Shown one piece after another: positions 13,318 through 36,982 of a DNA stretch of 47,488 bases; positions within the stretch are counted from its first letter, which is position 1; each line of letters begins with the position of its first letter. Both the position numbers and the translations under genes were made by a program. The notes below the pieces were generated by a model. That model ran no database searches, had not been told where the DNA came from, and worked only from the letters and a program-made list of their open reading frames with translations. The stretch lies in the NCBI GenBank assembly GCA_027398005.1, contig DAHYUM010000002.1, positions 1-47,488 on the forward strand. The letters run 5' to 3'. The DNA comes from a bacterium. GTDB lineage: Bacteria; Bacteroidota; Ignavibacteria; Ignavibacteriales; Melioribacteraceae.

Positions 13318-15417
13318 ATGTCGGGCAAGAAAGTAGAAATATCTAAAGTCAGGAATATCGGTATCATGGCGCATATTGATGCCGGTAAAACTACTACGAC
13401 GGAGAGAATTCTTTATTATACCGGAAAAGTTCACAGAATTGGTGAAGTTCATGATGGCGCAGCCACAATGGACTGGATGGAGCAGGAAAAGGAAAGAGGT
13501 ATTACTATTACAAGTGCCGCTACTACTGCTTTCTGGAATGAACATCAGATAAATATTATAGATACTCCCGGACACGTTGACTTTACAGTTGAAGTTGAAA
13601 GATCCCTCAGAGTTTTAGACGGAGCAGTTGCTCTATTCTGCGCTGTAGGCGGAGTTGAGCCTCAGTCGGAAACCGTTTGGCGTCAGGCCGATAAATACGG
13701 TGTTCCGAGAATTGCTTTTGTTAATAAAATGGATAGAATTGGAGCTGATTTCTTTAATGCTCTCCAGATGATGAAAGATCGTTTGGGGGCTAATGCAGTT
13801 CCTGTTACTCTTCCTATTGGCGAAGGAGATTTATTCCGCGGTACAATTGACCTTCTTTATATGAAGGCAAGAATGTATCACGAAGATACTCTCGGCGCCA
13901 CATTCGAAGAAATTGCAATTCCGGCCGACCTTATGCCAATTGCAAACAAATACAGAACTCTGATGCTTGAAGCGGTATCGGACGTAGACGATACATTATT
14001 AGAGAAATATCTCGAAGGTCAGGAAATTACAACCGAAGAATTACGCGAAGTATTAAGAAAGGCTACAGTTCAATCGAAAATTGTGCCTGTGCTCTGCGGT
14101 TCTTCATTTAAAAATAAAGGCGTACAGAGGCTTCTGGACGCAATTGTTGATTTTCTTCCGTCTCCTGCCGATTCGCCCGAATTGACGGCGCATCACGTAG
14201 ACAGGAACGACCAGATTGTTCTTAAGACGAACGAAAAAGAAAGTTTTACAGCGCTTGCATTCAAGATCATGACCGATCCGTTTGTAGGCAAGCTTACATT
14301 CGTAAGAGTTTATGCCGGTACTTTATCGTCCGGTTCTTATATATATAATTCTGTTTCGAATAAGAAAGAGAGAGTAGGCCGCATACTTCAGATGCACGCA
14401 AACAACCGCGAAGACATCGATGAAATAAGGGCCGGAGACATTATTGCAATGGTCGGTTTGAAAAATACAAAAACCGGCGATACTCTCTGCACCGAAGACG
14501 ATCCTGTTGTTCTCGAAAGAATGGCATTCCCCGAGCCTGTAATTCAGATTGCCATCGAGCCTAAAACAAAGGCCGACCAGGATAAATTATCGGACGCTTT
14601 GGTTAAACTTTCTGACGAGGATCCTACATTTAAAGTTAAGGTTCACGAAGAAACAGGACAGACTCTCATCAACGGTATGGGAGAACTTCATCTTGAAATT
14701 CTTGTAGACAGGATGAAGCGCGAATTTAAAGTTGAAGCAAACGTAGGTAAACCTCAGGTTGCTTACAGGGAAACAATTACAAAATCCGTTGAAGCCGAAG
14801 GCAAGTTTGTTAAGCAGTCGGGCGGACGCGGTAAATACGGACACGTTTGGATTGAAGTTTCGCCGAATGAACCGGGCAAAGGATATGAATTTGAAAACGG
14901 GATTGTTGGCGGTACGGTACCCAAGGAATATGTTCAGCCTGTTTCGTTAGGAATTCAGGAATCGATGAGAAACGGTGTAGTTGCCGGTTATCCGATGGTG
15001 GATATAAAGGTAAGACTTTTCGACGGTTCGTATCATGAAGTGGATTCGGATGAAATTTCTTTTAGAGTTGCTGGTTCTATGGCATTCAGGGAAGCAGCTC
15101 AGAAAGCTTCTCCGGTTCTTCTTGAACCTTTAATGAAGGTAGAAGTTATTACACCGGAAGAATATCTTGGCGATGTTATGGGGGATTTGAATTCGCGCCG
15201 CGGAAAAATTGAAGGATTTACCGCACGTAAGGATGCCCAGGTAATAAGGGCTACAGTACCCCTTTCAGAAATGTTTGGTTATGCTACTATTATGAGATCT
15301 ATGACACAGGGCCGCGCAATATACACAATGGAATTTTCACGTTATTCAGAAGTTCCGAAATCGGTTGCCGCCGAACTGACTGAAAAGAGCCAGGCAAATA
15401 AAAATTCAAATGTCTAA
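13318..15417 (+). CDS. fusA: Elongation factor G
   Basis: [40 protein letters not shown]. Confidence 0.99.
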
Positions 15418-34136: not shown

Positions 34137-35300
34137 TTGAAAAATTTTATTATTCTTGTGCTCGATGGAGTAGGCGTTGGCGAATTGCCCGATGCACCTC
34201 AATATAACGATGCCGGCAGTAATACTTTGGGAAACCTGGGTAATTTTGTAGGCGGTATGAACCTGCCTAATTTACAGAAAATGGGGCTAGGCAATATAAT
34301 ACCTATTAAAGGAGTTGATAACACCCCCTCGCCGCTGGCTTCGTACGGCAAGATGTTCGAGCAGTCCAAAGGTAAGGATTCTACTTCGGGGCATTGGGAA
34401 ATTGGAGGCCTTATTGTAGACGTAGAATTTCCCCTTTATCCGAATGGTTTTCCCGATGAAATAATTAATAAGTTCATTTCGGAAACCGGAGTAAAAGGAA
34501 TTCTTGGGAACAAGCCGGCTTCGGGAACCGAAATTATTAAAGAGCTTGGCGCTGAACATGTAAAAACCGGATATCCTATTGTTTATACTTCGGGCGATTC
34601 CGTATTCCAGATTGCCGCACACGAAGAAGTTATTCCTCTTGAACGGCTTTATGAAATATGCAAAATAGCCAGGCATAAAATTATGACCGGAAAGGATTCG
34701 GTAGGCCGTATTATTGCACGCCCTTTTGTAGGAACAGAAGGCTCTTTTACGCGCACCACAAACAGAAAAGATTTCTCCGTCGATCCTTTCGGATATACTA
34801 TTCTTGATACCTGCTCTAACGCAGGAATTAAAACCATAGCCGTTGGCAAAGTAAATGACCTTTTTAACTATAAGGGAATTGACGAAAAGCATCATACAAA
34901 ATCGAATTTGGAAGGAATTGAGGAAATTATAAAAGTAAATAAATCAGTCTCGTCATCCCTTATTTTCGCCAACCTGGTCGATTTTGATGTGTACTACGGG
35001 CACCGTCTGGACCCGGCAGGGTATTACAAAGCTTTACAGGAATTTGACGGCAGGCTCCCCGAAATACTCGATTCGATGGATGAAAGCGATATTTTAATTA
35101 TAACTTCGGACCACGGCAACGACCCCACTACTACAAGCACAGACCACAGCAGGGAATATGTACCACTTCTCTTTTACGGTAAAAACATTCAGCCCCGTTC
35201 ATTGGGCATAAGGAATACTTTTGCCGATGTGGCACAGACCGCATGCCGGTTCTTCGGGCTGAATAACTCGCTTGCAGGGGAAAGTTTCCTTATCGGTTAG
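34137..35300 (+). CDS. deoB: Phosphopentomutase
   Basis: FIILVLDGVGVGELPDAPQYNDAGSNTLGNL; KDSTSGHWEIGG; ITSDHGNDPTTTSTDHSREYVPLL; TTG start. Confidence 0.95.
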   Translation: MKNFIILVLDGVGVGELPDAPQYNDAGSNTLGNLGNFVGGMNLPNLQKMGLGNIIPIKGVDNTPSPLASYGKMFEQSKGKDSTSGHWEIGGLIVDVEFPLYPNGFPDEIINKFISETGVKGILGNKPASGTEIIKELGAEHVKTGYPIVYTSGDSVFQIAAHEEVIPLERLYEICKIARHKIMTGKDSVGRIIARPFVGTEGSFTRTTNRKDFSVDPFGYTILDTCSNAGIKTIAVGKVNDLFNYKGIDEKHHTKSNLEGIEEIIKVNKSVSSSLIFANLVDFDVYYGHRLDPAGYYKALQEFDGRLPEILDSMDESDILIITSDHGNDPTTTSTDHSREYVPLLFYGKNIQPRSLGIRNTFADVAQTACRFFGLNNSLAGESFLIG

Positions 35301-35544: not shown

Positions 35545-35844
35545 TTGATACTAGGCCGTGTTATTGGCACCGTTTGGTCCACAAGAAAAGATGAATATCT
35601 TGTAGGGGCAAAATTTCTTATTGTACGCCAGCTCGACCTTGATTATAAGCCGAAGGAAAATTTTGTAGTTGCGGTCGATTCGGTTGGCGCGGGAGTTGGC
35701 GAAGTGGTTTTGGTTGCGCAGGGCAGCAGTGCCAGGCAGACCACCTTTACGCGCAATAAACCAATTGACGCGGTTATCATGGCTATTGTGGATAAGCTCG
35801 ATATATCGGTTAAGGAACAGCTTGCGGGAATGGTTGAAGAATAA
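35545..35844 (+). CDS. EutN/CcmL-family bacterial microcompartment vertex (pentamer) protein
   Basis: GRVIGTVWSTRKDEYLVGAKFLIVRQLD...AVDSVGAGVGEVVLVAQGSSARQ...PIDAVIMAIVD, the EutN/CcmL signature; TTG start. Confidence 0.92.
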   Translation: MILGRVIGTVWSTRKDEYLVGAKFLIVRQLDLDYKPKENFVVAVDSVGAGVGEVVLVAQGSSARQTTFTRNKPIDAVIMAIVDKLDISVKEQLAGMVEE

Positions 35845-36113
35845 TGTATTTGGGCAGGGTTATAGGCACAATCTGGGCAACCAGAAAATATGAAGCCGTT
35901 AACGGTTACAAAATGCAGTTCGTTCAGCCTGTTAATGCGGATTTGAAAGCCTCCGGAGACCCATTTGTAGCGCTGGATACTGTTGGCGCAGGGCCGGGGG
36001 AAATTGTTTATTATGTTACATCGTGCGAAGCCGTTATTCCACTTGATGTTGATATGGCTCCGGTTGATGCTTCAATTGTAGGAATTGTAGATTCACTTTA
36101 TTCTGTATCCTAA
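35844..36113 (+). CDS. EutN/CcmL-family bacterial microcompartment vertex (pentamer) protein, second paralog
   Basis: [27 protein letters not shown]...[25 protein letters not shown]...[18 protein letters not shown] overlap with upstream gene. Confidence 0.92.
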
Positions 36114-36127
36114 TAGGAGATATCAGT

Positions 36128-36982
36128 TTGAAGATTCAAAAACAATTTACCAACAGGGAAAGCCAGTCGCTGGATAAATACCTTCAGGAAATTGGCAAGG
36201 TTGAACTTCTGGCTCCGGAAGAAGAAATTGATCTCGCAATCCGCATTAAGAAAAACGACAATATTGCTCTTGAAAAACTGGTTAAGGCAAACCTCCGCTT
36301 TGTTGTAAGCGTTGCCAAGCAGTACCAGAACCAGGGCTTAACCCTGGGTGATCTTATAAATGAGGGGAATTTAGGGTTAATTAAGGCCGCTAAGCGTTTT
36401 GATGAAACTCGCGGTTTTAAATTTATTTCATACGCAGTTTGGTGGATCAGGCAGTCAATACTGCAGGCATTGGCGGAACAATCCAGAATTGTTCGCCTTC
36501 CGCTTAACCGCGTTGGCGCTCTTAATAAAATTGGCAAAGCCTACAGCAGTCTGGAACAGGAATTTGAACGGGAGCCGAACGCAAGCGAGCTTGCGCAGGA
36601 ACTGGATATGGATGTTTCTGAAGTTTCGGACCACCTTAAGATTTCGGGCAGGCATGTTTCTATAGATGCCCCTTTTGCATCGGGGGAGGAGAACAGGCTT
36701 CTGGATGTTATTGAGAATGAAGACCAGCCTTCGCCCGACGCAAAGCTGATGAGCGAATCGCTTAAAAGCGAAATTGAAAGAGTGCTTTCAACTCTTAACG
36801 AAAGAGAAACTGAAGTTTTGAAATTATATTTCGGCATAAATAAAGACCACGCCCTTACCCTTGAAGAAATTGGGGAGATGTTTAACCTTACGAGGGAACG
36901 GGTAAGGCAGATTAAGGAAAAGGCAATAAGGAGATTGAGGCACGCTTCGCGAAGCAAGAATCTCCGTTCTTATTTAGGCTGA
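36128..36982 (+). CDS. rpoD: Primary-type RNA polymerase sigma factor RpoD (short form lacking region 1.1)
   Basis: [97 protein letters not shown] start. Confidence 0.96.

What the first reader, a model, noticed from the sequence alone, without database searches (positions are those of the whole stretch)
35545..36113. Tandem pair of EutN/CcmL microcompartment vertex proteins with no shell hexamer genes nearby
Two adjacent, overlapping (TAATG) genes encode divergent BMC-P paralogs with clear signatures (DSVGAGVGEVVLVAQGSSAR and [19 protein letters not shown]). No BMC-H/BMC-T shell gene or typical signature enzyme (aldehyde dehydrogenase, pduL) occurs in the window. This is either a satellite locus of a BMC encoded elsewhere or a repurposed pentamer pair working without a shell.
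Basis: partly seen in the sequence, partly recalled or inferred. Interest (0 to 1): 0.68.

Follow-up and report, generated by a model that had tools for sequence, protein, structure and literature searches.

The report
Vertex genes of a scattered microcompartment
The two genes are real corner-piece genes of a bacterial protein organelle whose other shell genes lie elsewhere in the same genome, and the way genes come and go together across relatives suggests that this scattered organelle, of unknown function until now, breaks down the sugar of DNA.

Summary
In detail: two intact, overlapping BMC-P genes (PF03319, 112 and 92 bits) lie between deoB and a sigma-70 gene, with no hexamer gene on the contig. 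The shell-free reading is not supported. The same genome encodes BMC-H proteins and three more BMC-P. Some of these belong to a second, fucose-type BMC.

In Melioribacteraceae/Ignavibacteriales the deoB–P1–P2–sigma block is almost invariant. It travels with a dispersed shell set: a third BMC-P beside dprA, a BMC-H pair, and a PduT-like BMC-T beside a PduS-like gene. This matches the FRAG BMCs of Sutter et al. 2021, whose function was unknown.

New here is the link to cargo. Genomes with P1 carry a deoxyribose-phosphate aldolase (DeoC) with a conserved 73-residue N-terminal domain. They also carry an acetylating aldehyde dehydrogenase with an encapsulation-peptide-like C-terminus. Relatives that lost P1 keep DeoC without the domain and lack the dehydrogenase. 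Outside the order, P1 and the DeoC domain co-occur 56/12/11/223. The window's own genome has both enzymes.

Best explanation: a satellite vertex locus of a scattered metabolosome in which DeoB feeds deoxyribose-5-phosphate to encapsulated DeoC and acetaldehyde dehydrogenase. Known kind; new functional assignment, supported by association only.

The parts
35545..35844 (+). P1, BMC-P vertex protein (EutN/CcmL family, 99 aa, TTG start)
   Evidence: PF03319 112 bits; 5v74 match 1.5e-24; orthologue in 92 of 116 relatives, counted
35844..36113 (+). P2, second BMC-P paralogue (89 aa), start codon overlaps the P1 stop (TAATG)
   Evidence: PF03319 92.5 bits; 33 invariant columns in 31 orthologues; model matches PDB pentamer subunits
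34137..35300 (+). deoB, phosphopentomutase; conserved upstream neighbour, supplies deoxyribose-5-phosphate
   Evidence: TIGR01696 479.5 bits; present in 76 of 80 named P1 loci
36128..36982 (+). housekeeping-type sigma-70 factor; conserved downstream neighbour, genomic context only, no role in the organelle implied
   Evidence: PF04545/PF04542/PF04539/PF00140; present in 75 of 80 named P1 loci

Best explanation
The pair encodes two of the three vertex (pentamer) proteins of a bacterial microcompartment whose genes are scattered over the chromosome: P1-P2 behind deoB, a third BMC-P beside dprA, a BMC-H plus BMC-H-with-extension pair, and a PduT-like BMC-T beside a PduS-like electron-transfer protein. 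The organelle is most likely a deoxyribose-5-phosphate metabolosome. In the cytosol deoxynucleosides give deoxyribose-1-phosphate, and DeoB converts it to deoxyribose-5-phosphate. This enters the shell, where DeoC, held by its N-terminal domain, splits it into acetaldehyde and glyceraldehyde-3-phosphate. The acetylating aldehyde dehydrogenase, held by its C-terminal peptide, turns acetaldehyde into acetyl-CoA. NADH is re-oxidised through PduS and the BMC-T. The shell keeps acetaldehyde in. Shown: gene identities, dispersal, conserved neighbours, co-inheritance, enzyme extensions. Inferred: encapsulation, substrate, flux, vertex placement, the PduS/BMC-T step.
For: (1) deoB...P1-P2...sigma: deoB and sigma both present in 72 of 80 named loci, mostly Ignavibacteriales. 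(2) The relatives read gene by gene carry the same scattered shell set; single-contig genomes show the dispersal is not an assembly effect. (3) The acetylating AldDH is present in 81 of 92 P1+ but 2 of 24 P1- relatives, Fisher 1.5e-13; the two exceptions (G003, G051) keep the extended DeoC and PduS, so P1 is probably missing by assembly. (4) DeoC carries a fixed ~73-residue N-terminal domain in nearly all P1+ genomes; P1- relatives keep DeoC with shorter, unrelated N-termini. In 393 class genomes: inside the order 72/1/3/15, outside 56/12/11/223, Fisher 1.2e-37. (5) AldDH C-termini end in a conserved short helix after a linker (FGSGISEEEIKKIVKEF). (6) DeoC lies 8-18 kb from the BMC-H pair in 13 of 16 genomes and AldDH 13-30 kb from the third BMC-P in 13 of 15. 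(7) The window's genome has both: DeoC with the domain on C291 (TIGR00126, 282 bits), AldDH with the tail on C110 (TIGR02518, 619 bits against a cut-off of 620). (8) G107 (P1 only, N-terminally shortened DeoC, no AldDH) and G100 (BMC-H only, partial N-terminus) look like joint decay.
Against: No direct evidence of encapsulation or substrate. BMC-T and PduS were not found in the window's own draft genome (87.6% complete; they are neighbours elsewhere, so one gap could explain both). No PduL phosphotransacylase in this set. DeoC's N-terminal helix is not amphipathic by an 18-residue hydrophobic-moment test (p 0.70-0.98), although 11-residue windows are moderately so; the AldDH tail is better (p 0.017-0.065). 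Genomes are related, so the Fisher values overstate independence; losses nevertheless fall in about ten genera, including two of five genomes in one genus. Nucleoside phosphorylases and RpiB were not searched. A class II aldolase also sits near the third BMC-P.
Confidence: 0.75

Rival explanations
1. The pair is a satellite that supplies extra vertices for the fucose/rhamnose-type (PVM-like) BMC encoded on contigs C7 and C185 of the same genome, and has no organelle of its own.
For: C7 is a real BMC operon: BMC-P, PduP-type AldDH, BMC-H, class II aldolase, acetate kinase, L-fucose isomerase.
Against: Most relatives with P1-P2 have no fucose BMC; the PVM-type AldDH passes its cut-off in only 14 of 116. 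The fucose BMC brings its own pentamers, which branch apart from P1 and P2. PduL tracks the fucose BMC (G006, G008), not P1.
Confidence: 0.08
2. The scattered organelle is real, but its main cargo is another aldolase or aldehyde source (for example the class II aldolase near the third BMC-P); the DeoC domain is a secondary adaptation.
For: A PF00596 aldolase lies five genes from the third BMC-P in the three relatives examined; related aldolases serve PVM and GRM5 BMCs (PMC8217296).
Against: That aldolase shows no terminal extension, whereas DeoC and the acetaldehyde-type AldDH do and track the shell. The AldDH scores as acetaldehyde-specific.
Confidence: 0.12
3. Repurposed pentamers working without any shell.
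For: No hexamer gene within the window. A few relatives keep reduced sets, such as G107 with one BMC-P and two BMC-H.
Against: PF00936 genes are in the same genome and 110 of 116 relatives; P1 is inherited together with cargo-type enzymes.
Confidence: 0.04

Closest known systems
FRAG BMCs (Sutter et al. 2021, PMC8217296)
   Same: Shell genes spread over several genomic places, a BMC-P triplet, named in Ignavibacteriae, few enzymes adjacent.
   Different: Reported there with unknown function. Here DeoC and an acetylating AldDH with terminal extensions are tied to it by co-inheritance. The FRAG subtype could not be assigned with the tools at hand.
SPU (sugar phosphate utilizing) BMCs (Axen 2014 PMC4207490; Sutter 2021)
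   Same: Proposed chemistry: DeoC-type aldolase, acetaldehyde, AldDH, products of DNA breakdown.
   Different: SPU genes are clustered with shell genes and include RpiB; here everything is dispersed and RpiB was not tested.
HO BMC (Haliangium ochraceum)
   Same: P1 is closest to its BMC-P 5v74; BMC-P triplet; some HO genomes have a distant pfam01791 enzyme with an EP-like N-terminus.
   Different: HO has a defined main locus; here the shell genes have none.
PVM / PVM-like BMC
   Same: Present in the same genome on C7 (fucose isomerase, class II aldolase, AldDH, BMC-H, BMC-P); reported for Melioribacter roseus.
   Different: A separate organelle with its own pentamers and AldDH.

Membership tests
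BMC-P (EutN/CcmL) vertex protein family | PF03319 domain above cut-off over its full length | tested here: met
   112 and 92.5 bits against 25, profile positions 1-83 of 83
BMC-P (EutN/CcmL) vertex protein family | Pentamer that caps shell vertices | not testable with these tools
   Only a monomer model was made
Satellite BMC locus (Axen 2014) | Contiguous shell genes of only one domain type, with a main locus elsewhere in the genome | tested here: met
   Only PF03319 here; C7 has BMC-P and BMC-H. That main locus belongs to the other BMC; the scattered one has no main locus.
FRAG BMC (Sutter 2021) | Shell genes at several separate genomic locations | tested here: met
   Own contigs C222, C100, C141; four loci in single-contig relatives
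FRAG BMC (Sutter 2021) | BMC-P triplet | tested here: met
   P1, P2 and third BMC-P fall in three separate groups; some inner branches weakly supported
FRAG BMC (Sutter 2021) | Assignment to FRAG1-7 by that paper's shell-protein models | not testable with these tools
   Supplementary models and data not available here
SPU BMC | DeoC-type pfam01791 aldolase | tested here: met
   In own genome with N-terminal domain, but not beside shell genes there
SPU BMC | RpiB-type pfam02502 enzyme | not tested
SPU BMC | Main locus with shell genes and enzymes clustered | tested here: not met
   Dispersed over at least four places; so not filed as SPU
Encapsulation peptide on cargo | About 15-20 residue amphipathic helix at a terminus joined by a linker | tested here: inconclusive
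   AldDH C-terminus fits (moment p 0.017-0.065); DeoC N-terminus conserved but not clearly amphipathic

The most novel reading that the evidence does not exclude
The FRAG BMCs of this whole class are housekeeping-like deoxyribose-5-phosphate organelles: their shell genes are scattered among core operons (ribosomal/sigma region, ruvX-tmk, dprA-rarA) and so may be made constitutively rather than induced, to recycle the sugar of DNA.
Probability: 0.45. Interest if true: 0.68.

Novelty: new member of a known kind. Interest (0 to 1): 0.5.

Why it matters
FRAG BMCs were catalogued in 2021 as enigmatic, and their authors expected the function to be revealed by some later correlation. Co-inheritance of the shell with an extended DeoC and a tailed acetaldehyde dehydrogenase gives these organelles a concrete, testable job in a widespread group of environmental bacteria. 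It also shows how cargo can be found when organelle genes are not clustered.

Tried and rejected
Shell-free pentamers: rejected by PF00936 hits in the same genome. Leftover of the fucose BMC: rejected by the BMC-P tree and distribution. PduL as a marker of this BMC: found only in genomes with the fucose BMC. Cytidine deaminase was my first guess for the ~130-residue gene between deoB and P1 in relatives; it is a PIN-domain protein (PF01850, weak but over cut-off), present in about half of the relatives, so not essential. A pattern scan for the same terminal peptides on other proteins in the fetched loci found only the AldDHs. Two early scans of genome contigs failed for technical reasons; the third worked. 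The M. roseus genome paper does not mention compartments. No held paper assigns a function to FRAG BMCs of Ignavibacteria.

Full report
Observation. Window 35545-35844 (P1) and 35844-36113 (P2) are intact BMC-P genes that overlap as TAATG. Both score far above the Pfam cut-off, match solved vertex proteins, and a model of the more divergent P2 matches PDB pentamer subunits. The window lies on contig C222 of a draft genome of 2.93 Mb in 337 contigs (87.6% complete). No PF00936 gene is on that contig. The upstream neighbour is phosphopentomutase deoB and the downstream neighbour a sigma-70 factor.

Is there a shell? Yes. The genome has three PF00936 proteins (C7, and two on C141) and three further BMC-P (C7, C185, C100). 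C7 is an operon with BMC-P, a PduP-type AldDH, BMC-H, a class II aldolase, acetate kinase and L-fucose isomerase, i.e. a PVM-like fucose/rhamnose BMC. The BMC-P on C185 and C7 group with the triplet of a relative's fucose-type locus, whereas P1, P2 and the C100 protein each group with their counterparts in relatives that have no fucose BMC. So two BMCs are encoded, and the window pair belongs to the other one.

Conservation. Relatives named by record title are Melioribacteraceae and other Ignavibacteriales, with a few Rhodothermales. P1 has an orthologue in 92 of 116 relatives of the order (counted). deoB and the sigma gene both lie in 72 of the 80 named P1 loci, often with a PIN-domain gene between deoB and P1. 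In single-contig or near-complete relatives the remaining shell genes lie at other fixed places: BMC-H and an extended BMC-H between ruvX and a ybbR/tmk block, a tandem-domain BMC-T next to a PduS/RnfC-like protein, and a third BMC-P next to dprA (families). G008 lacks the dprA copy, so the set is not identical everywhere. The dispersal is therefore real and ancient.

Cargo. The BMC-like acetylating AldDH (TIGR02518-like, about 530 aa) is present in 81 of 92 P1+ and 2 of 24 P1- relatives. It ends in a conserved short helix after a variable linker. DeoC is present in nearly all relatives, but in P1+ genomes it carries a fixed ~73-residue N-terminal domain and in P1- genomes it does not. A profile of that domain (A1) searched in 393 genomes of the class and compared with P1 in the same genomes gives, inside the order, 72 both, 1 P1 only, 3 domain only, 15 neither; outside the order 56, 12, 11 and 223. 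Genomes are not independent, so the p-values (2e-13 and 1e-37) overstate the evidence; but P1 losses are spread over about ten genera, and within one genus (g53) two of five genomes have lost both. G107 and G100 look like intermediates of loss. The PduS-like protein at 58% identity or more is likewise confined to P1+ genomes, apart from G003 and G051, where P1 is probably missing from the assembly. The window's own genome has the extended DeoC (C291) and the tailed AldDH (C110); it lacks detectable BMC-T and PduS, which are neighbours elsewhere and may fall in one assembly gap.

Mechanism. DeoB makes deoxyribose-5-phosphate, DeoC cleaves it to acetaldehyde and glyceraldehyde-3-phosphate, and the AldDH makes acetyl-CoA; a shell would retain acetaldehyde, and PduS with the BMC-T could recycle NADH. 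The enzymology is established knowledge of these families; encapsulation and vertex placement are inferred. The DeoC domain is not clearly amphipathic by hydrophobic moment, so it may be a docking domain rather than a classical encapsulation peptide.

Known or new. Axen et al. 2014 noted seven BMC-P in five loci of Melioribacter roseus (PMC4207490), and Sutter et al. 2021 (PMC8217296) defined FRAG BMCs, with shell genes in up to six places, a BMC-P triplet, Ignavibacteriae among the hosts, and unknown function. The locus is thus a new member of a known kind. The link to DeoC and acetaldehyde dehydrogenase resembles what Sutter et al. proposed for SPU and suggested for HO; I found no held paper that proposes it for FRAG. 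SPU membership is not claimed because the clustered main locus is absent.

Noticed in passing
L075:9120-9716, L078:8427-9059, L082:8854-9552, L087:9237-10142, L091:8641-9303: The second BMC-H carries a low-complexity, often acidic linker and a conserved C-terminal ~45-residue module (LNVHELRKLARSFxxFPIKGREISKANRxELIxHF); it resembles the Rho_N domain only below threshold (E 0.007), a possible nucleic-acid-binding tail.
   Followed up: partly
L085:8932-9790 and 13374-14144: Relative G066 has a BMC-P triplet 3.6 kb from a fuculose-aldolase-like gene, yet its only PF00936 genes are the scattered core set; these pentamers must share hexamers or do without.
   Followed up: partly
window:35301-35443: After deoB a short frame reads LLNALKILGL, like the PIN protein that relatives carry there; possibly a remnant of a deleted gene (tblastn gave no significant hit).
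   Followed up: partly
G007, G100, G103, G081, G115: These relatives keep one or two PF00936 genes but no detectable BMC-P, a possible case of hexamers retained after loss of the organelle.
   Followed up: no
L083:6180-7415 and L079:10934-12169: A SpoIIE-type phosphatase domain protein lies directly upstream of the PduS-like gene and BMC-T in several relatives.
   Followed up: no
window:43635-47488: Minus-strand sulfatase (SGSH_C/Sulfatase) and GLAA-B-like beta-helix glycosidase genes, consistent with use of sulfated or galactose-rich polysaccharides.
   Followed up: partly
L010:1-756: In the window's own genome the core BMC-H pair (C141) is not next to ruvX as in relatives; local rearrangement or draft-assembly effect.
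   Followed up: no
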